Source: Antedon mediterranea
Lineage: Eukaryota > Echinodermata > Crinoidea > Comatulida > Antedonidae
Direction: 5' to 3'
Assembly: GCF_964355755.1 (NCBI RefSeq)
Contig: NC_092678.1
Span: forward strand, 15,906,922 to 15,970,921
Length of the DNA: 64,000 bases
Below are positions 9,192 to 37,499 of the stretch, in pieces (within the stretch, counting starts at the first letter, position 1; the number at the start of each line of letters is the position of its first letter). The notes beneath the pieces are model-generated. The model saw only the letters and a list, made by a program, of their open reading frames with translations, was not told the DNA's origin and searched no databases. The translations under genes were made by a program, and so were the position numbers.

Positions 9192-9246
9192 ATGAAAAAC
9201 GTAAAACAACTGGTATTTCTATTTGTATACATTGTACATTGCACAG
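9192..9246 (+). CDS. Exon 1: signal peptide
   Basis: The exon encodes MKNVKQLVFLFVYIVHCT, a short basic start followed by a hydrophobic core, and then GTAAGA. It ends in phase 1 and joins exon 2 to make a glycine codon. No in-frame ATG upstream fits better, and the candidate TATA box lies 93 bp before it. Confidence 0.7.
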
Positions 9247-9468
9247 GTAAGACAGTTTCTTCTATTAGAGTATTCGTTGCATATGCGATATGTAATTCTT
9301 GTCTCCTTTTTGGGGGATGGTAAAGTATGTATAACGTATTTATTCGAATAAATACCCACGTAAAACGTAAAATAATTAATGATTTAAAAATGATTAGAAT
9401 GCTAATGTATAATTGTGTCATTAATTTTCTTTAGATAGTTCATTTAATTAAAAGTGTTTGTTTTACAG

Positions 9469-9708
9469 GTGATGTTATATTTGTGGCCAATGAACAAAAT
9501 CCTCCTGGAATGTTCATGTCAGATATAAGTTCCGGTGACACAGATTTAAGATTTTCTGAAGCAATGCAGAATGTTAAATTACGTAGACCATTCGCTGTTG
9601 ATTATGATATTAGTGCATCAACATTATACTGGTCTGACTTGACCAAGGCAACTATTGAACGTTATTCATTTGTCACCAACCAACATGAAGTTCTTTTGTC
9701 ATCAGTTG
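9469..9708 (+). CDS. Exon 2: start of the YWTD propeller
   Basis: It encodes a strand DVIFVANEQ, then LRRPFAVDYD and STLYWSDLTKATIERYSF. In the LDL receptor family the first blade likewise has a hydrophobic strand and then an R(I/L)YWSD motif, so this is the N-terminal blade. The borders are TTTTACAG and GTAAGT, with phase 1 at both ends. Confidence 0.85.
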
Positions 9709-10284
9709 GTAAGTAAAACAAATATTATTCTAAATTTTATTTCTTCAGTTTTTTTTTTATTAGGAATAACAACAGAGTTTTCATTTAATTATTATTTGTT
9801 ATCGTTTGTCGGAATACTGTAGGCCTACTTTCCATAATTGTTTCCTTGTTAAACTTCTTACATTTTATTCATTCATAATGCCTTCGGTCTAAATAATAAT
9901 AAACGTAACATATAATATACGTACACAATCAGTTAAACAACATCCTAAACATTGTTTTTTTTAATAACCAGTATCCACTTTTGGTGCATACTAAGTCAGG
10001 TCGTGTCGTTAGTAATGTGTATAGTCTAAGTTGTAACACTTTGTGCATAGTTTTAGAGAATAAGCACAAACAATAAATAAATCCGTCTGATTTTTATAAA
10101 CATTTTACCTAAACAATAGGACCGAGTAATGATTCCTGAAGCAATTGCAATAAATGCGAGAGTAGCCCAATAGTCCAAATTTACATCAGCGATTATACCA
10201 AAATATGGCCTACAGCAGTTTATATAATTCGTACCATGAATCGTAGTCCAGGTTCTTTCTACAAAACTGTGTTTAGCATTCATA

Positions 10285-10503
10285 AACCGACTCTAGTACT
10301 CAAGCTCTACAAAGTCTAAATTGGATGAACTTAGATGAAAGATTATATATAAATGAAGCTATTGTTATGTTTAAGATTATGGACAACCTTGCACCTCCAT
10401 ATTTATTAAATAAGTTCAATATCAAAAACAATTACTATAATATTAGAACTAAGCCAAATTCAATAGTACCAAAACCAAACACAAACTACAAAAAACGTTT
10501 CAT
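10285..10503 (+). mobile_element. C-terminal fragment of a CR1/L2-like LINE
   Basis: The translation LQSLNWMNLDERLYINEAI, then VMFKIMDNLAPPYLLNKFN, matches the C-terminal region after the reverse transcriptase in CR1/L2-type elements (NLAPPYL is diagnostic). It stops being alignable where a different LINE begins at about 10504. It lies in intron 2 of the adhesion GPCR gene. Confidence 0.65.
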
Positions 10504-11905
10504 TTGTGAACTGGGTAAAAGCACTGTATTACAAAACAAATTGTATATTCACAATTAATGGTTGGCAATCAGAAAGTTTTGCAATGCACCAAGGTATTAG
10601 ACAAGGATGTCCCTTGTCTGCTCTATTGTTTATTTTAGTAGCTGAAGTCCTAGCTACGAAAATAAGAGCATGTGATATGGTCAAAGGCCTGATTGTTCCT
10701 GCAGGCAATGGTATATTTAAAGATATTTAAGATTGCACAGCTAGCAGATGACACTGTGCTTTTTCTAAAGGATATAAATAGTATAGATAACAGCATAAGT
10801 ATTATTGAAAAGTTTGGAGAGGTTTCTGGATTAAAATTAAATAAGAATAAAACAAATGCTTTTTGGCTTGGCAGTTTAAAAGACTGCAAGGACACACCTG
10901 GTAATATTTCTTGGACATCCACACCAATTCGGATATTAGGTATCTATGTTGGACATGATAAGGAATATTGTTATCAAAAGAACTGGAAAGGAAAAATAGA
11001 CGCATTAGAAAATACCCTAAAAACATGGGAGAAAAGAAACCTCACTTTTTTTGGAAGAATTACTATTGTAAAAACATTAGCGCTCTCAAAAATTATATAC
11101 AATTCCAGCATTTTGCTAGTACCAGAAAAAGTAATAAAAGAGGTGGATAAATTAATGTTTAAATTCATTTGGGAAACTAAGAAAGAGAAAATAAAAAGAA
11201 AAACCATGTGTGCCAATTACAGTCAAGGTGGTCTAAAAATGGTAGAATTCAGATCTCAGATAATATCTTTCCAAGTTAAATGGTACAGGAGAATGTATGA
11301 AATCGATGATGCCAAATGGAAATATTTACCTACATTTTATATAGAAAAAAATAGGCCCAAAATCATTAACCTCACATTTATCAAAAGTTTCGTGTAATAT
11401 ATCCGTACCACCATTTTACCTCTCAGTTATTAAGTCAATAGCAGTAGCTAATGCTTGTAATAATAGACTAATTAAGGAACCAATAAGCTATGATGACATT
11501 ATTAATCAATCATTATGGTGTAATGAGTTTATATGTATTAAAAAGAAGCCGTTATATAACTGTAACTCGATTAGATCAGGGTTTTTAAAAATATATAATA
11601 AATAATAATGTGTTTAAGCCTGCGATAGAGATAAAAAGAAGGTTAAGATGTACACAAAATTGGATCAGTGAATATTCTTGTATATTGAAAGCCATTCCAA
11701 AAGAATGGAAATGTATTTTAAAATCAACACATGACATTAATGTAAATGATATACCTATTACAAACAATAAGGTCTTAAATATGACGTCTGGACAATTATA
11801 TAGATTCATAATAGATGCTCAATATATTACACCTACGGCACAGGTTAAGTGGGAATCCATATTTGGTAATATGCCATGGACAAAAATATGGGTTAAGAAA
11901 GTTTC
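10504..11905 (+). mobile_element. Tx1/L1-like LINE, 5' part, interrupted
   Basis: Reverse-transcriptase motifs are readable: RQGCPLSALLFILVAEVLAT, then ADDTVLF after a frameshift near 10728, then SGLKLNKNKT and GGLKMVEF. After a stop at 11395 the frame shifts to CNISVPPFYLSVIKSIAVAN and LWCNEFICIKKK, and shifts again from 11610. The 5' part (endonuclease, early RT) is absent. The order of motifs fits Tx1/L1-clade LINEs. A CR1-like element interrupts it at about 11905, and its coding sequence resumes near 13831. Confidence 0.75.
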
Positions 11906-13830
11906 TGGTCTTAATGTTTTTATCACGGAGAGAAAGAGAAGCGAAAAGATATACAGAAGCAAATCAAGCGGAAAATTATTGAATGCAAAAAGGAATATAA
12001 AAATAAAATTGAAAGGTCCTTCCGAAATCGTGACTCATCTCAGGTTTGGCAAGGTTTGCAGAATATTACTGGTTATAAACCGAAGGCAAAGGGTGTTGTT
12101 GTTGACAAAGAAAAGAAATATGCAAATGATTTAAATGCCTTCTACAACATATTTGATAAAGTGGACGTTGGCTTGAACATGAGGGAAACAACAAAACGCG
12201 TTGATGAACTGCCGGTACTCCCGGAACATTTTCAAATCACTGTGGACGAAGTGAACTTATTATTTAAAAAACTTAACCCACGTAAGGCAAAAGGTCCCGA
12301 TAATATTAGTTGTAAGACTCTTAAAATGTGTGCCGATCAGTTGGCCATTCCTTTTTGTAAACTTTTTCAATCCTCTGTAAATGACTCAATAGTTCCAATG
12401 TTGTGGAAAAAATCAACAATCATGCCCATTCCCAAAAAACCAAATCCCAAGAAAATGAATGACCTTAGACCTGTGGCCCTTACATGTGTACCAATGAAGT
12501 GTTTAGAAAAAAAAAAACAAAAAAAAAAAAAAAAAAAAATTGTTAAAAGTAAGCTAGTTGCCTCAGTGGAGAATCTGCTAGATATAAATCAATTTGCATA
12601 TCGTCCAAACAGGTGTGTTGATGATGCAGTGCTTCTGCTCCTTAATAATGTTTCTGAGCACCTAGAGAAAAAAGGTTGCTTTGCGAGAATTCTTTTTGTT
12701 GATTTCTCTAGTGCATTCAATAATATTCAACCATATGTTCTGGCTAATAAGCTTATCGATTTAGAAGTTAACCCACTGATTATAAAATGGCGTTGTTGAA
12801 AGTTAACACGGGTGTTCCACAAGGTTGTGTGTTATCACCTTTATTATACAATATACACAAATGATTGTAAGTCAAATAATACAAAAACTGAGATTATTAA
12901 ATATGCAGACGACACTGCTCTGATTGGTTATCTGGATTCAAAAAATGATTCAATGACAGGCTTCTTAGACAGTATTAATATTTTTCACAAATGGTGTAAA
13001 GATAATTTTTTAGATCTAAATATAAATAAAACTAAATAGATAGTTTTTGATTTTCGGAAGAAGATAAACTACCTTCCCAAGATCAAAATCAATGGTGAGA
13101 CCATTCCGGAAGTTAAAACTTACAAATATTTAGGGGTTGAAATTGATAATAAACTTAAATTTGATGCAAATAGTAGGTGCATATACAATAAATTACAAAA
13201 ACGTCTCTTCTTTCTACGCAAATTAAACTCTTTTAAGATTGACCGTACTATTTTACAACTTTTTTATACTTCTATCTTAAACTGTGCACTTAGTTTTTGC
13301 CTAATATGTTATTATGGTAATTCACGTTTTAAAGATAGACTTTTACTTAATAAAATAGTTAAACAAGGCAGTAGAATAGTAGGCTCTGAACAAATTCAAC
13401 CTGAAGTTTTATATAAGGAATTAGTAATTAAAAAATTGAAAATTATTTTAAAAGACCACGCTCATCCTCTGCACTATAAATTTAACAAAAGTCAACGTTG
13501 TGACAGACTCCTTCAAAGAAAAATTAAAACAAATAGATATGGCAATTCATTCGTCCCTGCCGCTATACGATTATATAATGAATGATAATATCATTCATTA
13601 TATAATCGTATAATCGTATTTTATGCGCTAAATTTATTTTTTGTAGTATTTTAAATCGACTTTTTAGGATTTTATATGTATATTTTGTATGGCTTTTTTT
13701 TTTATCGTATTTTATATTTATGTACTGTATCCATTTTATATTTGTATGTACTGTACTTTTGAAAAGGCCAACAGAGTTTCCCCATGGGGATAATAAAGTT
13801 TTAATTGAATTGAATTGAATTGAATTAAAG
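11906..13830 (+). mobile_element. CR1/L2/Rex-like LINE inserted inside the Tx1-like element
   Basis: Readable parts in order: VWQGLQNITGYKPKAKG, NPRKAKGPDNISCKTLK, QFAYRPNRCVDDAV, ILFVDFSSAFNNIQP, GVPQGCVLSPLLY (after a frameshift near 12795), YADDTALIG, WCKDNFLDLNINKTK, then a stop (13039) and KTYKYLGVEIDNKLKFD. The 3' end has GGGGATAATAAAG and a pentanucleotide tail of about four AATTG units, as expected for CR1/L2-type tails. An A-rich run at 12509-12538 interrupts the RT. It is 5'-truncated and inactive. Confidence 0.8.
13565..13611. repeat. Perfect hairpin, 22-bp arms with 3-bp loop
   Basis: The left arm (13565-13586) begins ATACGATTATATAATG; the right arm (13590-13611) is its exact reverse complement; the loop is AAT. 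It begins at the end of the LINE reading frame (AAIRLYNE), so the right arm is an inverted copy of the final codons. This is most simply a snap-back duplication. Confidence 0.9.
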
Positions 13831-14200
13831 AAAAAAAACTGGCACATTTTAATTTTAAATTGTTGCACAGAATATTGCCAACAAATGAAAGATTACATAG
13901 GTAGAGACTTGTAAATTCCCCATTTTGTGACACATGCAATGTTATTGAGAATGATAAACATATTATGTTAGTAGAGTGCATAACAGTAAAATGTTTATAT
14001 GGGAGAGAGATAAACGAAATAATTAGAGCAGTAAGCATACATATTCCTGTTTTTTTCTTTCAAAAGACTTTTATTTGAAACTGACAATAATTACGTGATA
14101 AATTTACACTTTAGGAGCATTTTGTATTTATAAAGTAAAGATATTAAGTTTATTGGAAAAAGAAAAAAAAATCAATCTCCTACAAATGTTTAAATCTGAA
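13831..14200 (+). mobile_element. Tx1/L1-like LINE, 3' coding part resumed
   Basis: Immediately after the AATTG tail of the inserted element the reading resumes with HFNFKLLHRILPTNERLHR, then PFCDTCNVIENDKHIML and VEC. The C-x2-C...H...C spacing is the C-terminal zinc-knuckle region of Tx1/L1-type LINEs, so 10504-11905 and this segment were one element. The end is not sharply defined. Confidence 0.7.
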
Positions 14201-14494
14201 AAAAAAGATAAGAAATATGTAAATCTGCAGGTATACTGTATATGCTCAACCAGATTAAGGAAGAAAATATGTAAATGAGATACCATGTATGATGAATCTA
14301 TTATGTTTGTTTTTTTTTTTTTTTTTTCTTGCTACTATATTGTATGTTTTGTAAATATGTATACCTTGATGATTTGAAAACAAAAAGACAAAATGTGAAA
14401 AGCTTTTTATAGATTGATGATACAAAAATGATGAAGGATAAGAAGGTTTAGGTTTAAGTGGTGAAGTGTCTTCATCAAAGCTTTCATATTATAG

Positions 14495-14522
14495 GTATAT
14501 ATATATATATATATATATATAT
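14495..14522. repeat. (TA)n microsatellite
   Basis: An uninterrupted TA dinucleotide run in intron 2. Confidence 0.9.
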
Positions 14523-14619
14523 GTAATATGCACATTCTTACTGCAGGTGGAATTTTGAAATGATAAAATGGTTAAAAAGAAAAAAAAATTCTAATTTTTT
14601 TAATGGATCATTAAACATA

Positions 14620-15190
14620 AATGTTGTTAAATGATAATGTATGTATAAAAAAATAATAGAATAAATAATAAGTAAAAGAAAAATTGAATGAACCCACATA
14701 AGAAAAAAAAAGGTAAATGAAACTTTGATGGGTTATACTGTAGATGCAAAAAAAGATAATCTGTTGGTAATGAATTTTGTAAACATTTAAAGATAAAAAA
14801 AAATCAATGTTAAAGGATGAGGAAAATATAATGTTAACAGTAAAAAGTTAGTAAGTAATTAGTATAACAGAGAATATGCATTGTTTAAATGAAAATATGT
14901 TTGCATAGATAAATCCAAAGAAAAATAAAATAGGGCAAACCCATGGGATGGATTTAGTAAACATAAACGTATTAGGCCTATAATTGTATGAAATAAATAT
15001 GCATGTAGATGAAAAAAAACAACAAAAACAACTATGTAAGAAAAAATAAGCTTTGTTAATGAAAATGTGTTATAGATAATATGTATAAAAAGAGGAAATT
15101 ATTTAATCAATGTGGTTAAATGATAATGTATGTATAAACAAAATAATATATGGAAATAGTGGGATGAACCCACATAAGATAAAAAAAACT
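14620..15190. repeat. Direct repeats of an A-rich ~80-bp block
   Basis: AAATGATAATGTATGTATAA followed by GAACCCACATAAGA occurs at about 14628-14705 and again at 15118-15182, with related words such as GGGCAAACCCATGGGATGG between them. It is non-coding and of unknown origin, perhaps from the 3' untranslated part of the neighbouring LINE. Confidence 0.5.
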
Positions 15191-15194
15191 AAAA

Positions 15195-15577
15195 AAAACG
15201 TAGCTTATCATATAGAGGTGCCAAGGTTTGGAATGAGCTACATGAAGATATTAAAAATGTGAACTCTGTTTCTCTTTTTAAGAAACTGTTAACTGCTAAT
15301 TTCATGTAGCTTTATTTAAATGTTGTGTATTATTTAATTTTATAGTTAGTAAGTGTATCCTTGTTTTATTTCATTGTAATTGTTTTATTATCTGCTTTTT
15401 TTTTACCTTCTGTAATTGTTTTATTATTTTTGATTTGATATCTGCTTTTTACATTTATTTTTGTTGGTGTTTTCCTTTTAGCACGGTCTTACTGAAAAAC
15501 AACTTTTAGTTGAGTTAAGTATCCGTGATTAAATAAAGCTTATTATTATTATTGTTATTATTATTATTATTATTAGA
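15195..15577 (+). mobile_element. 3' end of a CR1/L2-like LINE
   Basis: It encodes SYRGAKVWNELHEDIKNVNS and then VSLFKKLLTANFM with a stop, the usual last residues of CR1/L2-type proteins. An untranslated tail follows, with AATAAAG and (ATT)n at 15541-15577. Only the last about 40 codons remain. Confidence 0.75.
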
Positions 15578-16209
15578 AAAAAGTTAATATTTTTGCACAT
15601 ATGGCGTTTCTTACGTATAACACTTGAGGTCAAATTTTCCAGACAAAAATCGAAATGTCGACTGGTTAACTAGTAAAAAGAAAATATACAGACTTGGGGT
15701 ATGTCTACATAAATCGTTTACTTTCACATTATCTATCCTGCTTTCATAAAAAACAACCCTTGTGTAATGTTGTGTTCTGTGCATCGTTAATTACTTATTC
15801 ATGTAGGCCTATTGTATTTAAACGGGATGCGATGATTCGAATAATACACATTCAAGCGTCTCTCTAAAACCGACATATCCTGTAAAGAACTTAGGCCAAA
15901 CATGTATCAATCTACACATGATATTATTCTATCAAAAATAGTGTGATATGAAATAATTTGTAACTGTACTTACAGCAACGCATGGAGCGTGCGCACCCAG
16001 CGTTGTATTCTGGATCTGCCTCTGCCAAATAATGTCTATGGTGTTGTTATTTTATACTGCTAGTAAGGTATTTTTCAAATGTTCATACCATCAGACAATA
16101 CAATAAAGGTTACAGATGTATGAATTTATATTGGATATGTCTTTTTAGTGGTTATTGAACATTAAGATTGAGAAAACTAGACATAAACGTCTATAAAGAT
16201 CTGCAATTT

Positions 16210-16380
16210 TTTTTGTATGACTACAGTCTGTAATGCCGTATTTATTCAAGTGCGGTTTTATGGCGCGTGTAATTGAGGGTAAAATCACCATGGCGTTTAT
16301 TTGAAGGATTGGGGAGAGGGGGTGGAGTTTATTCCAAAGTATTTTAAAATTATGGGAGGAGGCGTTTATTTATTATTTAT
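16210..16380. repeat. Possible MITE-like GGCGTTTATT repeats
   Basis: Recurring words of the type GGCGTTTATTTGAAGG and GGAGTTTATTCC, with AGGCGTTTATTT, are spaced about 50 bp apart. The pattern is loose and I cannot define ends. Confidence 0.3.
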
Positions 16381-16466
16381 GATTTAAGATGTTACATTAT
16401 GTTTAAACTACTAGTTTTTATAACATTTATGTACGTATAAGATTCCACAGTATGTGATTACAACAT

Positions 16467-16910
16467 TATGATTATTATTATTATTACATTTATTTACCGA
16501 GGGTAGCCCAAACAGTTAAAAACTGGTTTCCATTGGGCCTTGCATTTCACGTTATTTGAGGGTAACGTAGCTCCTCTCATTTTGAACACAGTAAGGTGTT
16601 AATTGTACATTGTATCAAACAAATTGGATTTAAAAACACTTACAGAAGTCTCGGTTCTCATGATGTCAATATGCAAATTGTTCCATATATTTTTCCCACT
16701 TACACAAAAACTCGTGAGGTAAATTTCCTTTGTCGCAAAAGGGATCTTCAACTTCATAACTTTTGACTGCCTTGTTTCACGAGTTTGAGGTAATGGATTG
16801 AATAGGTTTATCATGCCTGGGGGTGCCAGATTGTTGAGACATTTAAAAACGAGTATGGCTTTTATATATGTGACTTTTTTGGAAAACGGGAGCCAGTTCA
16901 CATTGTTTTA
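16467..16910 (-). mobile_element. 3' end of a CR1/L2-like LINE, antisense
   Basis: The minus strand reads NWLPFSKKVTYIKAILVFKC, then LNNLAPPGMINLFN and GKNIWNNLHIDIMRTETSVS, typical of the C-terminus of CR1/L2-type proteins. The tail ends in (AAT)n on that strand. Its truncated end lies about 20 bp from the exon 3 splice acceptor of the adhesion GPCR gene. Confidence 0.75.
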
Positions 16911-16929
16911 TTGCTCATCATTATTTAAG

Positions 16930-17092
16930 ATTCGTATGGTTTAGCCGTTGATGGAACTGGAAAGAAACTTTATTGGACAGATAATGACAAAGCTCGAATT
17001 GAAGTAATAAATGTGGATGGAACGAACAGACAAATTCTGATTAACACAGGATTAAGCACCCCATATGCAATTGCGTTAGACACAACTAATGG
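16930..17092 (+). CDS. Exon 3: YWTD blade
   Basis: With the last base of exon 2 it reads DSYGLAVDGTGKKLYWTD, then ARIEVINVDGTNRQILI and TPYAIALDTTNG. GLAVD...LYWTD followed by DGTNR is the standard LDLR class-B repeat. The acceptor is TTATTTAAG, with a weak pyrimidine tract next to a LINE insertion. The exon enters in phase 1 and leaves in phase 2. Confidence 0.85.
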
Positions 17093-17369
17093 GTATGTCA
17101 CTATCTATATTGTTTACAGTACCGTGTGTCTTCTTTCAATCTCAATTACCTTCACATCTAATATTTGATTGAGAAAAATATTAAAATGCTATAAAACCAT
17201 TTGTACCTTTTAAATAATCAATGAGGAAAGTAATAGAGAATACGAAATGAAAACTTAACTCAGGTTTTAGTCATTTTATAAGATATCATACTTAGCTCTG
17301 CTTTCATTAGTTAATCTAAATTTTAAAAGACTGTGAACCACTATATTAACAGACATTGTACCTACTTAG

Positions 17370-17501
17370 ATACATATACTGGACTGATTATGGAAACAAA
17401 CAATTAAATAGAGCGAGTGAAGTTAAATGACTTGAGTATAAGAACTGCCTTAGTAACAACAGGACTTATAAGGTCATACGGACTTGTTTTAGCAGTTCCA
17501 G
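17370..17501 (+). pseudogene. Exon 4: YWTD blade with a frameshift
   Basis: It starts YIYWTDYGNKQLNRAS and then hits TGA in the expected frame. One base later the frame reads DLSIRTALVTTGLIRSYGLV and joins exon 5 correctly. The exon is 132 bp where the flanking phases require 131, so one extra base lies near the AGTGAAGTTAAATGAC segment. The lesion disables the receptor unless it is an assembly error. Confidence 0.8.
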
Positions 17502-18399
17502 GTAAGTTTATGAGACATGATTTATATCAATTGTACAAACTAGTACTAGTAAATAATACTACAAAGTTCAAAGTCGTTAATTGAGGACGCATCCCGAATT
17601 TCTGAAAAAAATCAGACCAATATGCGTGTATTAAAGTTCTGTTGGTCGGCAGTCACTGATTATGTACATAGTCAGACCTGACAATTACAATACAACTTGT
17701 GAAAGTTGTATTGTAGTTTTCAGATCAGAAAATAATATTTTGTTGCCGCTGTAAATAAAACTTTATTTTATGTATCTTGGTATTTAGCCTATGTCTATGT
17801 TATAGTTATATAGCGATTAATGCATTGTTTGGTAGATACTAAATGTTAAAATTATCCATTTATTGTTTTATAACGCAATACGTTTACATTATTACCATTA
17901 CAAAATAATCCAATTTTAACAGCAATTTTAGATCAGTCAAAAATTGCCTTTTTATTACTAGACTGTTTTAAAACTGCTCGCGTATAATGCTATAGGAGAT
18001 AAGCAGTCTTAACAAGCCCGCCCTGAAACTCAAATTTTATTTGAACAATGCTCTTAAGCTCTGTCTACATTAATATTAATAGTTGTGCCCACATTATGGT
18101 AGTAATATTCACACATATGTTACTGATATGACATCATCATCCTAAAAGGTCTAACATTCACAAAAATAATTACAAAAATAAATTACAATAATTTAATAAA
18201 TTAAACGAGTAGAGAGTAAATACAAAATACAATTTAAATATTTACAGCCAGTACTTAGCTCAAAGTGGAGAATTTTACAAGACTACTGTTTCAGATATTG
18301 ACAGTTTATACCATAATTTAGTAATTTTACCAACTTTCAAACAATTTCGACTTAAAATCACGTCATACGATCTTCATGGTGAAGTTTATTTTTATTACA

Positions 18400-23635: not shown

Positions 23636-23884
23636 ATGGAAAAATGTATTGGTATGATGAAGGAACTAAAGTAATTGAAGAATCTAACCTTGACGGAACT
23701 AACAGAAGAACGATTGCAACTGGGCTGAATTACGCGTCTGGAGTTGATATTTATGGAAACTATCTGTACTGGACAGACACATCGGATGGTGGCATATATC
23801 GAGTTGATAGAACAACTGGAGTATCATCAAATGAAAGTAGAGATAGTCGACTTAATAGACCAAGAGGATTATACATTTTAAAAA
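23636..23884 (+). CDS. Exon 5: last two YWTD-type blades
   Basis: It reads (D)GKMYWYDEGTKVIEESNLDG, then GVDIYGNYLYWTDTSDGGIY and RPRGLYILK. The first motif is YWYD rather than YWTD; the second is canonical. The closing PRGLYIL strand precedes the EGF domain, as in LDLR-family propellers. Borders are CACTATAAG and GTAAAT; it enters and leaves in phase 1. Confidence 0.85.
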
Positions 23885-25293: not shown

Positions 25294-25299
<6 letters not shown>

Positions 25300-25366: not shown

Positions 25367-25368
<2 letters not shown>

Positions 25369-25477
25369 ACAACAGGCATAGAAATAAATTCCAAACCGCT
25401 CGGTGATACACTGAAAATTATTTAATTAATTTTTGAAACGATAAAGATGAGGAAATCTGGGAGAATGAGAAAAAGTC

Positions 25478-25548: not shown

Positions 25549-25689
25549 TTTCATGGTATTGTTCTTTAACTCGATCGGATAACGACCCTTTAACATTCTC
25601 GGCGTGGTACGGTTGGAACACAACTAATCCACAGTTGTACGCACGCGCACCAGAATCCAAAGGCAAATTACAGAAAAAATATATAAATA

Positions 25690-27035: not shown

Positions 27036-27039
27036 ACAG

Positions 27040-27165
27040 GTTTAACTAACTGCTCTTCTAATCAATGTTCAACAAATGGGTTGTGTTATAATCCAAGTTC
27101 TACCCACTCGTGTGAATGTGATACACAGTTTTTTCGTGAAGTCGGTTGAGGTAGAGGTTGTACAG
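27040..27165 (+). pseudogene. Exon 6: EGF-like domain with in-frame TGA
   Basis: It reads LTNCSSNQCSTNGLCYNP, then THSCECDTQFFREVG, then TGA at 27147-27149, then GRGCT. Six cysteines fall in EGF spacing, and an EGF domain after a YWTD propeller is the LDLR-family order. The stop sits between the fifth and sixth cysteines, where TGG or CGA would fit. Borders are TTCTTACAG and GTAAGT, phase 1 on both sides. Confidence 0.8.
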
Positions 27166-27704: not shown

Positions 27705-27812
27705 AAGGTTGCCCTCATGATGTTGTAATGGTGAAAAATGTAAACTATACATTTGAATATACTCTGGCGGAAATGTTTGCAAATTCCATAGAATTGTGTG
27801 GCACGGGTAACA
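27705..27812 (+). CDS. Exon 7: first half of a HormR-like domain
   Basis: It reads EGCPHDVVMVKNVNYTFEYT, then LAEMFANSIELCGTGN. Conserved cysteines and the length suit the first half of the hormone-receptor-like domain that precedes GAIN in many adhesion GPCRs. The assignment rests on exon 8. Phase 1 on both sides. Confidence 0.65.
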
Positions 27813-28559
27813 GTAAGTATAAATGCCTTAATTACTTTGTCTTTACATTTTATATTAAACGCACTCTAAATTTGTCGAATGAAATGTACATTACAATGAG
27901 CTAACCGATTACTAGTTCGTGTTCTAGATTTACCGTATACAATATACTTTAAAATAAAATGTTTTGTTTCGTAAATATTTATATATATTTATAATTGTAC
28001 AATAAAGTAAAATACTTTGTTTCGCCATGTACCCTTTAGTACTTACCAAGTACTTATATCTACATATAGCTTTAATAGTTTATCAAAAACAAATACACTA
28101 ACATTTGTCATGCTATGTATTTAATAAGTACGGTTACCCGTTACTGTCAAGCAGGTTGACACACAAATACGAGTATTTTCGAATTAAAGAACATCGCTGA
28201 ACTAAAAACTACAACATTCAAAAAGCTCGCATAATTAGAGAATTATGCAGAAAACAAATGCAAATATCTCCTAGCACAATTATTATATTTGCAATGTTAT
28301 TAGAATAATAACTTATAAATAGGCCTAAAATAACTAAACACAAATTTTAATTTTCATTTTTCTGTGAAATAATTAAAAATAAATCTATACTATCAATCAA
28401 AACACAATAAAAGAAAACAAATGTTTACCTCCGAAATTTAAACTTTTAAATATTTGCAATATTCTTTTGTATCCCGCTTGACAGTAACCAATACGGCTAC
28501 TGTAATATTGTATATAATTTATAAACAAATACCATAGATCGTACCTACCATACTTCGTG

Positions 28560-28765
28560 AGGTAAATTCCCGATTGATCGTAATCAAAATGGTACTGGGT
28601 ATGGTCTACTAGATTTTCTGCTCCCAACCAGTACATCCATTCATAGAAGCTTTAATGAAGTAAGCCTACCTGGTGGTAACCATAGAACGGTTCCGAGATA
28701 ACGACTATACTTCGGCTTTAGTCGATAGAAGATTGAATAAATTGTTAGAGATAGAGTATACGATG
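28560..28765 (-). repeat. Dispersed repeat X, copy 2
   Basis: The reverse complement gives GGTTACCACCAGGTAGGC, TTCTATGAATGGATG, then GGTTGGGAGCA and CCCAGTACCATTTTGATT, matching 1-190. A further partial piece (ACCATAGATCGTACGTAC) follows at about 28870. It lies in intron 7. Confidence 0.65.
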
Positions 28766-29010
28766 TTATGATTATGTGTAGATATGTGATTTGTTCTTTT
28801 TATTCAAATGATGTTGAGTATTTAATAAATTTGTTATATCAATTAATTCAATTATCGTAGATTGCATATTACCATAGATCGTACGTACAATACTTTACAA
28901 ATTCACGAAGTTCACATATCATGATGAATAAAAGAAATAAATGGCTGCTGGTATGATTAGTAATTATTATAATATAAATAGCAACTATTACCGTGTAGAT
29001 TTGTTATTAG

Positions 29011-29117
29011 GTTCATTAGCAGAGCGCATGTGTAATCTAAATGGAGGAAGAGGAGGCACCTGGGGAGAAATTAAATTAAATCTATGCGTAAACTATACCA
29101 TTGCTGAGTTGGCTGAG
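29011..29117 (+). CDS. Exon 8: second half of the HormR-like domain
   Basis: It reads SLAERMCNLNGGRGGTWGEI, then KLNLCVNYTIAELAE. The pattern A-x-R-x-C...G-x-W...C is the signature of the C-terminal half of HormR domains. It enters in phase 1, making AGT with exon 7, and leaves in phase 0 at GAG|GTAAGA. Confidence 0.75.
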
Positions 29118-29715
29118 GTAAGAGGCGCCTACAATTTTACATGCTAAGATCAAATTCAATATATTTTTAAAATCATTATGACACATTATAACACATACAA
29201 ATTGATACATTAGTTACTAGCATTACAAATAAATACATTTAGGCCTAGTATAAAAGATTTTCCAGATAGCCCAACAAACGTATATTATATAATTATGGTT
29301 AGAAGGCAGTGATTACATAATTATAGTATCAACAATTTCGTATAGCGAAATGTAGTCTTGAGTCAAGTACATTACCTTAGGTGGTAACCTAAACTACAGC
29401 TTCCCTTTAGATTCATGTTGATGTACTAACAAATAAACAGATATTTCTAAAAATGACGATAATGTAATCTTAATAAAATCCTATTTTCCCATTTCATAAT
29501 TATTTTAAACATTTTTTAATCAATTTTTTTTTTTAATAAAGTTAAATAACAAAAAAAGCAAACAATTATAAATAGGCCTAGCTGCATAAGTTTTTTTTTT
29601 CAATCTTAAATTCTTTTTAATAAATGAATCGGTTTGTGTTCCACAATGTACTCACATGATGCTAGAGTAGAGGAGTTATCGAAATGGAGCTAGTGATTTT
29701 TGTTTGTATTTATAG

Positions 29716-29862
29716 ATAAGGGTGACCAAAGAAACCGCTGAAGCAGTTGCTGAGCAGTTATCAGCCAATACTATTGAAAACAATTGGGACACAAACGTTA
29801 CTATTGATGTCATTGCCTCGATTCTAGAAAGGTTAACTGACGTAGGCGCGGGAAATGAAAGA
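29716..29862 (+). CDS. Exon 9: helical start of the GAIN domain
   Basis: It reads TKETAEAVAEQLSANTI and then DVIASILERLTDVGAGNER, amphipathic helices with the VA..L...T...IA.IL..L spacing of GAIN subdomain A. The donor is AGA|GTGCGT, and the phase is 0 at both ends. The intron that follows (29863-34057) holds the second Helitron-like copy and the tRNA-like array. Confidence 0.75.
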
Positions 29863-30261
29863 GTGCGTTTGTTTATCTTATATTTTTTAATTGTTTATTT
29901 ATTTTATTTATTTATTTATTTTTATTGTTTATTTTTTAATTGTTTATTTGGACAAGACAGAAAGAAAATGTATTTCGTTTTATGTCATTGTTTTAAGAAT
30001 CGAGTAAAGATGATCCATTAGACCTTCGAGAGAGAAAGAGAGCAAACAATTTACAAACCGTAATTATTTTTATAAAGTTCTTTTTATATTTTCCTAATCA
30101 TAGTATTGGGTTATAAATTAAACTATGAAATAATACACCACCGATTAATACAAGTTTGTCTCTATTTTTCGCATCACAATAAACTCTAGTTCAAACTCCC
30201 TCGCTTCATACCCACCACATTATTTGGATTTGGATGAGCACTGTTTCTATAATTTACAGTA

Positions 30262-32807
30262 CTAGATGGCACGCTCGCTTCGCTCGCGTACCATCTAGGG
30301 GTGCTCACAGATGGTTCTCGAATACAGTAGAATCCACGGACGGGGACTTTTTTGGGACACTAAACAAAAATGGAAGTGTCTCCCTAATTGGGGTATTCAG
30401 AAATAGAGACAACAAAACCAATACTGGATTCCACAAAGGACAATTAATTTATGTGGATTAAAGAAATTAGGGAGAAATGGAAATGTATGTACGGGAATTG
30501 GGCGGCGGCACGTGGTGGTGGTGATGGAACCGCAGTAATAAAGTTGATTGTATTTATATATTATAAGAACCAAACTAAATAATAGACATTCTGCGAAATG
30601 GAAATCGGAAATTCAAGCTCCTATTCAGTAAAAAATTAAACTGTAGTCTACCTAAATATTTAGGGCAAATCATCGGTTGTGGTGTTGAACTTCCTGTAAA
30701 CATTTGTGTGAACCAAACTGGGTCGAATTTCTGTCATGAGTACTGATTTGTTGGCCTGTGATTTATGACGCCTAAGGGATCTATCTAGACTTATTTTTTA
30801 GAATAATGTACGTACCTGTCAGATACAATTGTCTTGTGTCGTATAATAAATAAGTACTGTAATAGTTACTGAAGTTACTATTACAATCTCGTCAATGAAA
30901 ACACGAAAATGTATATGCACTTACTTATGAAAACGTATACAGTATTATACTCAGTTATTGAAACAGTAGGTTTAAAAAAGTTTCGTTTGTCTGTAAAATG
31001 ATGTAATCAAGCTGTTTACATGAGTCTTAATTTATAAGCACATCAATAATAAAATAGTTTATCTATCCTGTAATTGGCGAGATTATGGTCGCTGTTGAAT
31101 GAAATAAAGCCAATCGGTATCATATTTGTACAGAAACGTTTTCGCGGCCGAAGGGTGTAACCTAAATTCGTTGTATTATCGTCAAGAACTAACTGTAACT
31201 AAACTTACATAGAAAGTAGGGTATCATAAATTTGACCTTAGCACTCGGGGGAGTGGCTAAGATGAAGTCCGTGGGACTACTAAATATAAATTGTAATGAA
31301 CCTCGAGGGACATAAATAGGAATATTTCATGTTTCATTATCAATGTATAATAAATGGAAACTGTTTACCGATTCAAATAATAGAAATTGGTTTTTAACAT
31401 TTTCCGAACCTATTGCAAGTTTATTCTCAAAGGGCACATATTATATTTACCTACCGTATGTGTTAAACCAAGGGCTCATAAATTTACCTACAGTACTTGT
31501 GTTAAACCAAACTGGATGTTCCATTCATCGCAAATCAATACATTTGTATAATCGTATATTAAATCTATCAAAATAGTATTTTTTAAAGAAAATCGGCCTG
31601 TCTTCAACATTATGATGGTGTACTCTAGCAATCTATCAAAATAGTATTTTTTAAAGAAAATCGGCCTGTCTTCAACATTATGATAGTGTACTCTAGCTGT
31701 TCAACCGGTTTTCAGCAGCTATTAAAAACAATTATCGTAGGAGGAGATAGGAAAATGCGAAGCCTCCTCGCTATGTAACATTAGGGTTGAGGGATGGGAA
31801 AGCGGATAGGTACAAAGAGGAACAATTTTTAAATATATTCTTTATCCACTGAGTAACGAAATATTTTGTTCATGTTTTATAGGCCTATAAATAATATACC
31901 TCTAAATACAGTAGGCCTAAAACATTTGCGATTTAATACTTTGTTAAAACTGTCACTGTCATAATCGATTGAAATATTAAAGTACATGTCACGATACACC
32001 ACTACGACGTTTATATTTTTGGTAATTATTAATTAATACAAACGTTGAGAAGGAACCGTCAGTATAAAGTTTATTTGTATATCTAACAGTAGAGCCTATC
32101 CACAGTCTCAGTAATAAAGTTTATTTGTATATATTTTTATATTACATCTAACAGTACGAACATTCACAGTAAGAAATGTTCGATTCAAATGAAAAATAGT
32201 TAATAGGTATTTACAGTATTGTCAAATTATTGCAAGTTTATTCTCAAAGGGCCCATATATTTACCTACCGTATGTGTTAAACCAAGGGCTCATAAATTTA
32301 CCTACAGTACTTGTGTTAAACCAAACTCTGGCAGACTGAGAGATTGGGATGTTCCATTCATCGCAAATCAATACATTTGTATAATCGTATATTAAATCTA
32401 TCAAAATAGTATTTTTTAAAGAAAATCGGCCTGTCTTCAACATTATGATGGTGTACTCTAGCTGTTCAACCGGTTTTCAGCTATTAGAAACAATTATCGT
32501 AGGAGGAGATAGAAAAATGCGAAGCCTCCTCGCATTTTTTTGGCGGGTATTTTTCAAGATGGACATCCATTAGACAGTGTATACCACGATCGGAAAACAC
32601 CCCTATTTGGGGCAAATCTTTGAACCTAAATTCGTTTTAATCGTCAATAACTAATTATCTAACTCAATTTAATTAGTAAACAGGGTTACATCAGGCGGTT
32701 AAAATCAGTACCGAAAGTACGAACCAACTTTACATACCATCGAGTGAAAATTCTAGAAGTAAGGCGCGATTTACCGAATTTTGCCCTTACGTAAATTTAT
32801 ATATAGA
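30262..32807 (-). mobile_element. Helitron-like element, copy 2 (antisense, internally rearranged, 2546 bp)
   Basis: On the minus strand it begins TCTATATATAAATTTACG (32807 downward) and ends CCATCTAG (30262), with A and T flanks. Its two flanks together read ACAGTA plus TGATTT, and this joined sequence exists uninterrupted at the borders of the neighbouring 367-bp units (33170-33181, with close variants at 33537 and 33903), so an empty site is visible. The element is longer than its relatives because of internal duplications: 31419-31640 repeats at 32226-32462, and a block of about 60 bp is doubled at 31560-31690. It has no Rep/helicase. Confidence 0.8.
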
Positions 32808-32997
32808 TGATTTATATATAATTTACACAGTGCTACGCAACATCATTGATTTACATTATGCACAATATTATTTAAAAAACCGCTGCGAATTAAAGTTGGA
32901 ATTTATTCTGACTTGTTAAGCCTCCACTGATTGTGAGGGCGTTTGTTGTATGAGAGAATGTATCTGGTGGGTGAAAATCTGTGATAATACCATACAT

Positions 32998-33068
32998 GGC
33001 TCTGTGGTCTAGTGGTATGATACTCGCCCTGTAAGCGAGAGGTTGCAGGTTCGAATCCAGCCAGAGAC
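32998..33068 (+). tRNA. tRNA-like sequence, unit 1 (Pro-like body, TGT anticodon); probable pseudo-tRNA
   Basis: A 71-nt cloverleaf: GGCTCTG, box A TGGTCTAGTGG, anticodon stem CTCGC/GCGAG with loop CCTGTAA, and box B GGTTCGAATCC. The anticodon would be TGT (Thr). Oddities are C instead of the near-universal T at position 33, an A51-A63 mismatch in the T stem and a G2-A71 mismatch in the acceptor. The body resembles tRNA-Pro. Both pol III promoter boxes look intact, so it may be transcribed even if it is not a working tRNA. Confidence 0.5.
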
Positions 33069-33364
33069 ATTTTTTCATACAACTAAAAAATATGGAACTT
33101 TCGCCAATGAGCTATGCTCGACGCGATTATGAGATCATGTTCCGAATATGAGCACCGTTTCTATAATTTACAGTATGATTTATATATAATTTACACAGTG
33201 CTACGCAACATCATTGATTTACATATACACAATATTATTTTAAAAACCGTTGCGAATTAAAGTTGGAATTTATTCTGACTTGTTAAGCCTCCACTGATTG
33301 TGAGGGCGTTTGTTGTATGAGAGAATGTATCTGGTGGGTGAAAATCTGTGCTAATACCATACAT

Positions 33365-33435
33365 GGCTCTGTGGTCTAGTGGTATGATACTCGCCCTGTA
33401 AGCGAGAGGTTGCAGGTTCGAATCCAGCCAGAGAC
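33365..33435 (+). tRNA. tRNA-like sequence, unit 2
   Basis: Identical in sequence to the unit 1 copy, including C33 and both stem mismatches. Confidence 0.5.
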
Positions 33436-33731
33436 ATTTTTTCATACAACTAAAAAATTTGGAACTTTCGCCAATGAGCTATGCTCGACGCGATTATGAG
33501 ATCATGTTCCGAATATGAGCACTGTTTCTATAATTTGCAGTATGATTTATATATAATTTACACAGTGCTACGCAACATCATTGATTTACATATACACAAT
33601 ATTATTTAAAAAACCGCTGCGAATTAAAGTTGGAATTTATTCTGACTTGTTAAGCCTCCACTGATTGTGAGGGAGTTTGTAGTATGAGAGAATGTATCTG
33701 GTGGGTGAAAATCTGTGCTAATACCATACAT

Positions 33732-33802
33732 GGCTCTGTGGTCTAGTGGTATGATACTCGCCCTGTAAGCGAGAGGTTGCAGGTTCGAATCCAGCAAGAG
33801 AA
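33732..33802 (+). tRNA. tRNA-like sequence, unit 3 (more decayed)
   Basis: Same as units 1 and 2 up to the T arm, but the 3' acceptor strand reads CAAGAGAAA rather than CCAGAGACA, weakening the acceptor stem further. Box A and box B are unchanged. Confidence 0.4.
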
Positions 33803-34057
33803 ATTTTTTCATACAACTAAAAAATACGGAACTTTCGCCAATGAGCTACGCTCGACGCGATTATGAGATCATGTTCCGAATGAGCACTGTTTCTATAATT
33901 TACAGTATGATTTATATATGTATTTAATTTGTTTTTAACACAATATAATTATTAAAATAGAGTAAGAATATTTATTACTTTGTGTAAAGTACAGAATTAT
34001 TAGAGTAGGGCAAACATATGATCATTTAGTAATTATATTTTATTATATATTTTTCAG

Positions 34058-34579
34058 GTAACCGACTTTACAGTCAATATTGTGGGTAACCTACAGAATG
34101 CTGACGATGAGTTGTTTTTAACAGACATAGCTTCCACTTCCAGTATCATACGGTCGCTTGAAGCTCAGCTAGCATCACTGTCAGACTACGAAGCGGTTGA
34201 GAAAAATATAGCTGTACATACCAAACAGTATCTTCATGATGAATTAAGCAAGGGCATTGGATATTTGATTGATGATACTTCTGGAACCGGTTTTCAAAAA
34301 AAGAATATTCACACATATAAAGAAGAATTGGGCACCTTTCAGACGAAGGCATCAATCTTTTTACCTCCTGACATTGTTGAATTAAGTCAAAATCAAACCG
34401 GTATAAACAAGACTCAAGTGAGCTTCGTTGTCTATGGAACGTCTAAGTTATTTACATCTAATCGTCTGAAATCGATTAACGACAGCAGGATTGGAAGTCT
34501 TATAATTTCGGCTACAGTTGAAAACGTTATAGTAGAAGGTCTGCGAGAACCGATCAAAGTCACATATTTACCAGTAGAG
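34058..34579 (+). CDS. Exon 10: main part of the GAIN domain
   Basis: 174 codons in phase 0, from VTDFTVNIVGNLQNADDE through SIIRSLEAQLASLSDYEAVE to PIKVTYLPVE. The pattern of helices followed by beta strands (TKASIFLPPDIV, TQVSFVVYGTSKLF, GSLIISATVE) is that of a GAIN domain. Several N-x-T/S sequons are present. The donor is GAG|GTGAGA. Confidence 0.8.
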
Positions 34580-34846
34580 GTGAGAACTAGGTGACCCAGT
34601 GATTATGTTCACGCTCAGAAGAACCGGGCATGGACATACTGTGATATACACGTACCCCTCTAGGCGTGTGATGATCTTAATTGTGATCTCGTCCACATTT
34701 AACAAGACAAAGATAAATATCATATTATCATGTTAAAATGATGATAAATTTGAGTTTTAGGTAGACATATTATACCAATATATGATCATTGTTCTATCGT
34801 GAAATTAAATAAAAGAAAGCATAACTGTATTTTTTTTTAAACACAG

Positions 34847-34999
34847 GATGAACTTGATAACTCTGAGTGTGTTTTCTGGAACTTTACATTGTAAAACGGA
34901 CATGGTGATTGGTCTAACGAAGGCTGTTACTACAACACAACATCAGACGATCGTATCGTCTGCTTCTGTGACCATTTAACAAACTTTGCAGTCATAATG
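34847..34999 (+). pseudogene. Exon 11: GPS motif with in-frame TAA
   Basis: It reads ELDNSECVFWNFTL, then TAA at 34892-34894, then NGHGDWSNEGCYYN and CFCDHLTNFAVIM. C-x-FW, then GDWS..GC, then C-x-CDHLTNFAV is the GPS of adhesion GPCRs, cleaved between L and T. The stop is one substitution from GAA (Glu), the expected kind of residue there. Phase 0 on both sides. Confidence 0.85.
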
Positions 35000-35454
35000 G
35001 TCAGTATTCTTTTCTGATTATGTATTCGTTATCTTTTCATGATTTTTGGTTATTTATTTGGTATTATGGTGTTTTTTTTAATAACATGCCACGTAACAAC
35101 GAGGCTAGTTGAAAAAAGTCTATAACATTGAATCTTCACACAATGATGGTTCATAGTGGTAGTTGCATGAAAGTAATTGTAATCTTCCAAATATCTTATT
35201 AATAGTGCCATTCGGCCCAAGGTCCTAACTTACCTTCGTCTCAACAACATTTTTGTTTTAATGAAGTTCCTAAAAGCAGTAAATAAATAGATACAATACA
35301 AAAAGCCCCAAAAACCCTACAAAAAATTGTAAGCAATCTTTACATTCAGTGACCTGGTTTTTTTGTATTGACCTGTTCATGTGAATTTGTCTCTGCTATA
35401 TCATGGACGTAATGCATTTGTTTACCATAGTATAAATAATGTGTTTTCTTACAG

Positions 35455-35579
35455 GATTACTCTGGACAAGCCGGCCAAACCACTACATTCGAGGATCTAC
35501 TTACATACATTAGCATCATTGGTTGCGTCATATCTATCATGTGCTTGGTATTTACGATTGTTACATTTACATATTTCAG
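35455..35579 (+). CDS. Exon 12: TM1
   Basis: After a short linker (DYSGQAGQTTTFEDLL) comes the first helix, TYISIIGCVISIMCLVFTIV. The I..IG...S..CL pattern is typical of TM1 in adhesion GPCRs. It leaves in phase 2 and joins exon 13 to restore an arginine codon. Confidence 0.85.
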
Positions 35580-35905
35580 GTAAGATAAAACAAGAAACTA
35601 AATTTGCATACATTACATCACTTGGCTAGTATTATGATTTAATTATTTTCTCTTTCACCATTTCTAATCAAGTGTCTGTAAATGTACTCTAAGCCAATAT
35701 ACAGTATCACAATGATGTAAATGTGCATTGTACAGTAGGTTATCAAGAAATGTATTTATTTCAGTTCCACAATAATATTATATTATATTATTCTCAGCAA
35801 GTTTAGAAGGTCTATAAAACATTTTTATACTTTTATATTAAACACACACTTAAAACTTCATTTATAACAACGTGGTTTTATTATTTTTTTTTTTTATTTA
35901 TCTAG

Positions 35906-36168
35906 AAAATTACGTGGAAAACGTCCCCAACGTATACTGGTCAATCTGTGTTTTTCTCTGATGTTACTATACACTACATTTGTGGTCGGTATTGGCTTAA
36001 CATCGTGTCCCAATTGCTGCATCGTGGTAGCCATTCTTCTACATTACTTTGTTCTCACAACACTTTTCTGGATGCTTGTCGAAGCTGTGAATATGTATCT
36101 GCAATTCGTTTTAGTGTTTTACGATGGAGTACGTTTTTTCGTGTTGAAGTCTGCTTTAGTTGGCTGGG
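35906..36168 (+). CDS. Exon 13: TM2 and TM3
   Basis: It reads RILVNLCFSLMLLYTTFVVG and then LLHYFVLTTLFWMLVEAVNM. LNLC-type TM2 and the HYF.L..FFWML.E sequence of TM3 are hallmarks of family B2 receptors. It enters in phase 2 and leaves in phase 1. Confidence 0.9.
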
Positions 36169-36409
36169 GTAAGTAGATACGTTTAAGCTGCCGTACTATT
36201 AGTACTAAAGCATAGCGCCGTGCCAGTACGCATCCCCAACCCCAACCCCCCGGAGTAGTTCCTATATTGCTTCGTTTCGGACCTTATAGACTCTTCAGTA
36301 AGCTATCCTTCCTTCTTTATTTGCCTAAATATATTAATAACAAAAAAACAATACAAGAATGTACATCGTAAAATAAATATCAATGTGTTGCTTATTTCTT
36401 TTTGAACAG

Positions 36410-36479
36410 TTCTTCCTATCATACCAATTACAATCATTGCTGCTGTGAAGTGTGAAGAAACATATTCTAATGGAGATTA
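36410..36479 (+). CDS. Exon 14: TM4
   Basis: It reads VLPIIPITIIAAVKCEETYS, then NGDY, continuing the GWG..P pattern started at the end of exon 13. 70 bp, entering in phase 1 and leaving in phase 2. Confidence 0.8.
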
Positions 36480-37045
36480 GTAAGTTTCTATGTATTGAGC
36501 AATTTCAAAAAAGTGCAAAACAAGGTTTCAGATAGGCCAACTGGTAGATCGCAGTCGTTGTAGGCCCATAGACAATTGCCGTAACAGTAGACTAATCCTA
36601 ACCAGGAAAGGCTGAGACTTCTCCTTGTCCTTGCCTTACTATTGTTCATTCGGGACTGTTGTGACCCGAGTATTCAGCACTCTGTCTATCAACGATATTG
36701 GCTAAATAATTATTAAACTGTACGATTAAACTAGACATCTATTCAGTGAAAGACCAACACTATTTGATTTACAGTACTTACAATTTACAACACATGCTGT
36801 TGAATCTGCAATAGCTCCATATTATTTAATACTAATGCAACTTGTAGTGCTAATATTGATACTAGTACGGTATTTAAACGCATGCACTATTGACTACTAT
36901 TCAGCAATAAGATAATCAATTATAAAATAGACTTAACAGTTTCACACATTATAAAGTTATACTTTTACGCTTAAGTTTTGCTAAACGTTTATACTTCATG
37001 TATACAATCATTAACAGAAAATTTAACCTTGTTTTGCCCACTCAG

Positions 37046-37499
37046 TTGTTTTATGAAACCTGGAAACCCGATATACTTCGGTTTGTTACTCATCTCATCT
37101 ATCGTCCTCTTCATCAACATGGTCATGTTCGTATTAATTATTCGAGGACTGACTTGCCAACGAACAGTAACGTCGTCAAAACTGAAGGATACAAGTAAAA
37201 TGGACGAGCTGACTACACGCCTACGTCAAGCCATATCGATAATGATGTTGCTTGGCTTAACGTGGATCTTCGGATATTTCTCCATTCAGTCTTCTGACGC
37301 AGTTCGTTTTTCGTTCCAATTGTTGTTCTGCGTATTCAATTCCCTACAAGGATTTGTTATCTTTGTATTTCTCTGTATTCGTCGTAAGGATGTCCGAGAT
37401 GCGTGGGCAAGTTGTTTCTACTGTCTACGGACCGAAGTTACTGGAAGCAGCACTGCCATGTCAAATCCGCGACGTAGGATTGCAAATACCAAACTTTGA
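37046..37499 (+). CDS. Exon 15: TM5-TM7 and C-tail
   Basis: It reads CFMKPGNPIYFGLLLISSIV, then LRQAISIMMLLGLTWIFGYF and FNSLQGFVIFVFLCIRRKDV, then a tail of about 30 residues ending ANTKL and TGA. LLGLTWIFG (TM6) and FNSLQGFFIF (TM7) are signatures of adhesion GPCRs. This exon is undamaged. A dead copy of its second half is at 187-375. Confidence 0.92.

What the first reader, a model, noticed from the sequence alone, without database searches (positions are those of the whole stretch)
9192..37499. Adhesion GPCR with an LDL-receptor-type six-bladed propeller
The exons splice in phase from a signal peptide through five clear Y-W-(T/S/Y)-D motifs and the closing strand of a complete propeller. 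They continue into an EGF domain, HormR-like, GAIN/GPS and 7TM. In known vertebrate adhesion GPCRs the only propeller I recall at the N-terminus is the unrelated olfactomedin domain of latrophilins; a YWTD propeller plus EGF on an adhesion 7TM is unusual. It suggests a receptor that binds ligands like LRP/nidogen-type proteins and signals directly.
Basis: partly seen in the sequence, partly recalled or inferred. Interest (0 to 1): 0.78.

Follow-up and report, generated by a model that had tools for sequence, protein, structure and literature searches.

The report
Adhesion GPCR with swapped-in LDLR-type propeller
An animal genome carries cell-surface signalling receptors whose outer tip is a borrowed LDL-receptor-style propeller with fast-changing loops; the copy in this window is damaged, but an intact copy lies elsewhere on the same chromosome.

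Summary
The architecture is real: signal peptide, YWTD propeller, one EGF-like exon, a short HormR-like segment, GAIN/GPS, 7TM, in 15 exons with canonical splice sites. The window copy does not read through: exon 4 breaks frame, and exons 6 and 11 hold in-frame stops. It looks like a recently inactivated member. A paralog on the same contig (locus A, 14.90-14.94 Mb) has all 15 exons in the same phases and one open 976-residue frame; a third (16.76-16.79 Mb) keeps the order but is rearranged. A diverged aGPCR on another contig lies behind the same kind of propeller, joined by EGF and HYR exons. The two-gene reading is therefore unlikely, but no RNA was available. The propeller is a phase-1 exon cassette: four close relatives of the receptor carry an unrelated N-terminal domain instead, and other propeller copies precede lectin-type or single-pass exons. 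Predicted top-face loops have two to three times the dN/dS of the framework in two sets of loci, which hints at recognition of changing ligands. Verdict: a new variant of adhesion GPCR; window copy damaged.

The parts
9192..9246 (+). exon 1: signal peptide (by eye), ends in phase 1
   Evidence: 84% identical exon in locus A
9469..9708 (+). exon 2: closing strand plus first YWSD blade of propeller
16930..17092 (+). exon 3: YWTD blade
17370..17501 (+). exon 4: YWTD blade; reading frame broken inside this exon (around 17400-17410)
   Evidence: keeps phase in both paralogs
23636..23884 (+). exon 5: YWYD and YWTD blades, end of propeller
27040..27165 (+). exon 6: EGF-like; in-frame TGA at 27147-27149
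   Evidence: EGF_CA 18.1 bits in locus A, below cut-off
27705..27812 (+). exon 7: HormR-like segment, first half
29011..29117 (+). exon 8: HormR-like segment, second half (start revised from 29023)
29716..29862 (+). exon 9: GAIN domain, first part
   Evidence: paralog region aligns to ADGRG6
34058..34579 (+). exon 10: GAIN domain, main part
34847..34999 (+). exon 11: GPS with HL/T motif; in-frame TAA at 34892-34894
35455..35579 (+). exon 12: TM1
35906..36168 (+). exon 13: 7TM, following helices
36410..36479 (+). exon 14: 7TM, middle part
37046..37499 (+). exon 15: last TM helices, cytoplasmic tail, stop

Best explanation
The locus is a recently damaged member of a small family of adhesion GPCRs whose N-terminus is an exon-shuffled, LRP-type YWTD propeller plus EGF. 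SHOWN in sequence: exon order, damage in the window copy, an intact paralog, phase-1 borders of the N-terminal cassette, a different N-terminal domain in four close relatives, and more nonsynonymous change in the predicted top-face loops than in the framework. INFERRED: in intact members the top-face loops bind a variable protein or glycan ligand; the GAIN domain cleaves itself at HL/T; ligand binding or pull exposes the tethered agonist (TNFAVIM...), which activates the 7TM and a G protein. The same propeller cassette seems to have been reused on other secreted and membrane proteins in this genome.
For: Window model, 15 canonical exons. Pfam on the window: Ldl_recept_b 40.2 and 30.5, GPS 55.2, 7tm_2 148.3 bits, over cut-off. 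Paralog A: 2931 nt, 976 aa, no stop before the last codon, same phases; the same three families over cut-off. Propeller-EGF part of A aligns to LRP6 (3sob, E 6.8e-35, residues 61-319), LRP2, LRP4, nidogen; GPCR half aligns to ADGRG6 across GAIN and 7TM (E 1.6e-60). Second aGPCR lineage with propeller, six EGF exons, HYR, EGF and Ig before GAIN-GPS-7TM; where borders were found, mostly phase-1 exons. 8 of 54 propeller clusters (8 of 39 with two or more exon matches) have a GPS within 100 kb downstream on the same strand. Cassette swap: four aGPCR genes at 18.60-18.67 Mb have homologous HormR-GAIN-7TM exons but another N-terminal domain; in the one read it sits between phase-1 introns. Loops versus framework dN/dS: 1.07 versus 0.45 over 13 nearest disjoint pairs, 1.05 versus 0.41 over 12 without the window copy; 2.34 versus 0.70 over 4 pairs of a second set.
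Against: No transcript or protein evidence. Paralog B has a partly degenerate EGF exon, no exon 1 found and a duplicated GAIN block, so only one fully intact copy of this exact layout was shown. EGF, GAIN and HRM models are below cut-off or absent. Loops do not exceed strict neutrality in the first set (one-sided p 0.37, 0.43 without the window copy; 0.11-0.12 for my hand-picked pairs) and do so weakly in the second (0.017; 0.024 hand-picked). Some pairs show no loop excess, such as C3_13.80/C3_13.92 and C1_5.91/C1_7.26. dS is also raised in loops of several pairs, so hypermutation, conversion or codon-path artefacts are possible. Most propeller clusters, 46 of 54, have no listed GPS downstream, though that list scores only the best candidates.
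Confidence: 0.72

Rival explanations
1. Two adjacent genes: a secreted propeller-EGF gene followed by a separate adhesion GPCR gene, kept next to each other by block duplication.
For: Three C9 loci could come from duplicating one block; 46 of 54 propeller clusters have no listed GPS downstream; six short ATG frames lie in the exon 6-7 gap of the window.
Against: Exon 6-7 gap is 539 bases in the window; exon 7 has no start and joins exon 6 in phase in locus A; the one clear signal exon is upstream of the propeller; a diverged aGPCR on C1 is joined to a propeller by EGF and HYR exons, mostly phase 1.
Confidence: 0.08
2. The window copy is intact in the animal; the frame break and the two stops are assembly errors or one bad allele.
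For: Exons are otherwise well conserved, and window-specific changes are not much more nonsynonymous than those of paralog B (GPS-7TM 10/8 versus 7/8).
Against: Three separate lesions in one gene, none in locus A; 95 of 96 propeller exon stretches translated hold no stop, so the assembly does not look generally error-prone.
Confidence: 0.2
3. The propeller binds a conserved LRP/nidogen-type ligand (lipoprotein, laminin, Wnt antagonist).
For: Sequence similarity to LRP6, LRP4 and nidogen propellers.
Against: Residues at the predicted top face differ strongly among copies while the framework is kept.
Confidence: 0.12

Closest known systems
Latrophilins (ADGRL1-3)
   Same: Adhesion GPCR with OLF, HRM, GAIN and 7TM (passages of PMC6422961); OLF is a propeller (recalled).
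   Different: The olfactomedin propeller is unrelated to YWTD (recalled). PMC6422961 says that echinoderm sequences of this group lack OLF (passage).
ADGRG6 / ADGRG2 / ADGRG7 (GPR128)
   Same: Best sequence matches of the GAIN-7TM half are ADGRG6 and ADGRG2; weak GPR128 domain matches below cut-off.
   Different: I know of no YWTD propeller in these receptors (recalled).
LRP6, LRP4, LRP2 propeller-EGF modules; nidogen
   Same: Same YWTD propeller type; the LRP6 and LRP4 alignments run on into the EGF part.
   Different: Those are single-pass or matrix proteins (recalled); here the module sits on a GPCR, and no LDL class A repeat was found in locus A.
LDL class A GPCRs (Ciona LDLRR-GPCRs, snail GRL101)
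   Same: GPCRs with LDL-receptor-derived ectodomain parts (passages of PMC2396169).
   Different: Class A repeats on rhodopsin-family receptors, not a class B propeller on an adhesion GPCR.

Membership tests
Adhesion GPCR | 7tm_2 domain | tested here: met
   148.3 bits window, 132.5 locus A; cut-off 20.6
Adhesion GPCR | GPS motif with H-L/T cleavage tripeptide and cysteines | tested here: met
   GPS 55.2 / 59.2 bits; CDHLTNFAVIM. The window copy has a stop inside it.
Adhesion GPCR | GAIN domain | tested here: inconclusive
   Only GPR128_GAIN_subdom_B, below cut-off, but ADGRG6 aligns through this region
Adhesion GPCR | Self-cleavage and G-protein signalling | not testable with these tools
   needs expression
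YWTD propeller (Ldl_recept_b) | Repeated YWTD blades with a closing strand | tested here: met
   Five YW[S/T/Y]D motifs; Ldl_recept_b over cut-off; LRP6 alignment. Six blades are inferred, no structure was made.
LDL-receptor family protein | LDL class A repeats | tested here: not met
   None in the Pfam scan of locus A
EGF domain after propeller | Six-cysteine EGF | tested here: inconclusive
   EGF_CA 18.1 and EGF 17.2 bits in A, below cut-off
HormR (HRM) domain | Pfam HRM | tested here: not met
   HRM in 0 of 4 segments at E up to 10, nor
Intact gene (window copy) | Single open frame across exons | tested here: not met
   Frame break in exon 4, stops in exons 6 and 11

The most novel reading that the evidence does not exclude
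The YWTD propeller is a germline-diversified recognition cassette of this animal lineage: dozens of copies with highly variable top loops on one conserved frame, plugged by phase-1 exon shuffling onto adhesion GPCRs, lectin-like and single-pass proteins, and used in immune, allogeneic or gamete recognition with direct G-protein output.
Probability: 0.25. Interest if true: 0.85.

Novelty: new variant of a known kind. Interest (0 to 1): 0.6.

Why it matters
It adds an LRP-type propeller to the ectodomains found on adhesion GPCRs and shows a likely route: a phase-1 exon cassette that also sits before other proteins in the genome. If the fast-changing top face reflects ligand recognition, it is a testable case of a diversified recognition module wired straight to G-protein signalling.

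Tried and rejected
Identifying the species: a COX1 family search matched 0 of 1 genomes, and literature searches did not identify the assembly (listings only). G000 has 354 Mb in 18 contigs; the contig lengths shown for C1, C2, C3, C5, C6, C8, C9 and C11 are 22-41 Mb. That suggests a crinoid to me, by recall and unverified.

Structure prediction: not run. The tool takes sequences that the DNA gives letter for letter, and a spliced product is not clearly one; the rule was not probed. So propeller fold, top face, HormR and GAIN rest on sequence and general knowledge.

Two-gene model: considered and put aside. HormR by Pfam: no support. The multi-TM ORF behind the propeller at C8 (L017) matched no family above cut-off. 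The SEA-like stretch of the C1 gene matched none. Homologs in other species: not testable; no animal genome collection was available.

Loop test: the loop classes were set after I had seen a first alignment, so the permutation p values are not independent. My 8 hand-picked pairs there gave 1.19 against 0.38 (1.15 against 0.36 without the window copy), out of 16 pairs printed. The second set used the same classes on 9 other loci; my first 4 pairs were picked after all 36 pair values were printed (2.04 against 0.61). I then repeated both with a rule, nearest disjoint pairs by framework (in one search the rule was applied by hand to the values printed); these are the values I rely on. In some searches the site counts are an average of 2.28/0.72 per codon. 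Of the 54 clusters, 26 copies went into and 9 into; the others were fragments, other YWTD genes or not fetched. Exon 4 was left out in all of them, and exon 2. (8 of 42) used only part of the rows; one search replaces it with all 132 and 139 rows.

In print: listings for adhesion GPCR with YWTD, class B repeat or propeller terms, or with echinoderm terms, showed nothing relevant among those seen: 20 of 667, 25 of 317, 16 of 16, 12 of 19, 8 of 78, 12 of 14, 12 of 12. Passages only were seen in PMC13197933 (first 300,000 characters held), PMC12716839, PMC2396169, PMC4302439 and PMC6422961. This does not show absence from other literature.
Full report
OBSERVATION. Stop-to-stop frames and splice signals give 15 exons on the + strand between 9192 and 37499, with AG/GT borders apart from the start and the end. 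They encode a signal peptide, five YW[S/T/Y]D motifs, an EGF-like exon, a short two-exon cysteine segment, GAIN, GPS with CDHLTNFAVIM, and seven TM helices. Pfam on the window's exons gives Ldl_recept_b (40.2 and 30.5 bits), GPS (55.2) and 7tm_2 (148.3), over cut-off.

THE WINDOW COPY IS BROKEN. Exon 4 cannot join both neighbours in frame, and its two halves are open in different frames. Exons 6 and 11 hold in-frame stops at 27147-27149 and 34892-34894. Window-specific changes are not much more nonsynonymous than those specific to paralog B (N/S: propeller 29/8 against 26/8, HormR 15/8 against 7/4, GAIN 17/6 against 13/10, GPS-7TM 10/8 against 7/8). That fits recent inactivation, but also an assembly error or a null allele; reads are needed.

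AN INTACT RELATIVE. A genome search with the spliced protein (X at the lesions) showed two further loci on the same contig with the propeller upstream of the GPCR exons. Locus A (C9 14.8985-14.9360 Mb) has all 15 exons in order with the same phases, 2931 nt, and codes for 976 residues. Pfam is over cut-off for Ldl_recept_b 53.7, GPS 59.2 and 7tm_2 132.5; EGF and GAIN models are below cut-off. Locus B (C9 16.760-16.794 Mb, minus strand) keeps exons 2-15, but half of its EGF exon is degenerate and its GAIN-GPS block is duplicated; exon 1 was not found.

ONE GENE OR TWO. The exon 6-7 gap is 539 bases in the window, about 983 in B and 8506 in A. Exon 7 carries no start and joins exon 6 in phase 1 in A. 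Six short ATG frames lie in the window's gap; I judged signal peptides by eye only. On C1 (7.2625-7.2995 Mb) a diverged aGPCR (GPS exon 51%, TM exons about 35-64% identical) lies on the same strand downstream of the same kind of four-exon propeller (Ldl_recept_b 86 bits). Between them are six EGF exons, several HYR exons, one EGF and one Ig (one HYR, the EGF and the Ig tested by Pfam); where the script found borders, they are mostly phase 1. HYR-like frames also lie upstream of that propeller, so there it may be internal. I did not complete a spliced model of this C1 gene. Over the genome, 8 of 54 propeller clusters (8 of 39 with at least two exon matches) have a GPS within 100 kb downstream on the same strand: 3 on C9, and 5 on C1 that share 4 GPS sites 20-64 kb away; only one of the C1 group was fetched as far as its 7TM.

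A SWAPPED CASSETTE. Close relatives of the GPCR half, four genes at C9 18.60-18.67 Mb, have homologous HormR-like, GAIN, GPS and 7TM exons. None of the 132 propeller matches listed falls there (130 of 309 candidates were scored). They carry a different N-terminal domain (WIPVFKGVSG in the gene read), whose first exon is found at 4 of 4; no Pfam family matched it. In the one gene read, by eye, this domain follows the signal exon at a phase-1 intron and joins the HormR-like exon at a phase-1 intron. The propeller-EGF cassette sits between the same kinds of intron in the window and in A. Other propeller copies are followed by exons for C-type lectin and other sequence (C9 18.22 Mb, Lectin_C 64.4 bits; C9 16.53 Mb similar by eye), by a probable single-pass TM protein (C6 5.187 Mb, by eye) or by an unassigned multi-TM ORF (C8 3.177 Mb). 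These downstream links were not proven to be single genes.

FAST LOOPS. Among window, A and B the propeller (exons 2, 3, 5) has dN/dS 0.83 (W-A), 1.29 (W-B) and 0.78 (A-B); the other segments have 0.26-0.54. In 26 aligned copies, residues just after each YWTD motif and in the loop before the next blade vary, while the framework is kept. With nearest disjoint pairs taken by rule, dN/dS is 1.07 for these loops and 0.45 for the framework over 13 pairs (Fisher p 4.8e-08), 1.05 and 0.41 over 12 pairs without the window copy. On 9 other loci with the same classes, 4 rule-based pairs give 2.34 against 0.70 (Fisher p 0.0049). Against strict neutrality the loops are not significant in the first set (p 0.37 and 0.43) and p = 0.017 in the second. 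Single pairs differ, and some show no loop excess. dS is also raised in loops of several pairs, so hypermutation or conversion remain possible. So relaxed or diversifying change in the loops is shown; positive selection is only suggested. That these loops form the top face is general knowledge of propellers, not computed here.

HOW IT WORKS (inferred). Sequence matches place the propeller with LRP6, LRP4, LRP2 and nidogen and the receptor half with ADGRG6 and ADGRG2. I expect ligand capture by the variable top face, GAIN self-cleavage at HL/T and activation by the tethered agonist. The changing loops argue for variable partners rather than one conserved LRP ligand.

KNOWN OR NEW. The searches named in Tried and rejected showed no report of a YWTD propeller on an adhesion GPCR in the listings that I saw of the held open-access library; database annotations and subscription papers were not seen. 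The receptor belongs with adhesion GPCRs; it is not an LDL-receptor family member (no class A repeats). I rate it a new variant of a known kind.

Noticed in passing
window 10286-13585, + strand, in intron 2: Broken retroelement remnants with reverse transcriptase (RVT_1 28.1 and 28.8 bits, just below the cut-off of 29.6).
   Followed up: partly
window 32807-33919, in intron 9: Tandem array of about three copies of a 367-base unit, 97% matches.
   Followed up: no
window 41076-42179 and 49715-50456, + strand: Two galactose-3-O-sulfotransferase-like reading frames (Pfam 225.7 and 64.1 bits); the second lies in two overlapping frames and may be disrupted.
   Followed up: partly
window 58734-59801, - strand: Rhodopsin-family GPCR exon (7tm_1 109.6 bits); looks relaxin-receptor/LGR-like to me (recalled).
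   Followed up: partly
G000 C9:16090202-16090654: Stray copy of exon 15, 97% identical to the window's.
   Followed up: no
L017 3433-4563 (C8 3.18 Mb): Single-exon multi-TM reading frame about 570 bases behind a propeller exon; no Pfam family over cut-off.
   Followed up: partly
loci W, A, B: GPS-7TM exons are 93-97% identical in DNA, while GAIN of A is 74% identical to the other two: mosaic history or gene conversion.
   Followed up: no
G000 C9:18.71-19.00 Mb: Nine more GPS matches in an apparent tandem aGPCR cluster whose N-termini were not examined.
   Followed up: no
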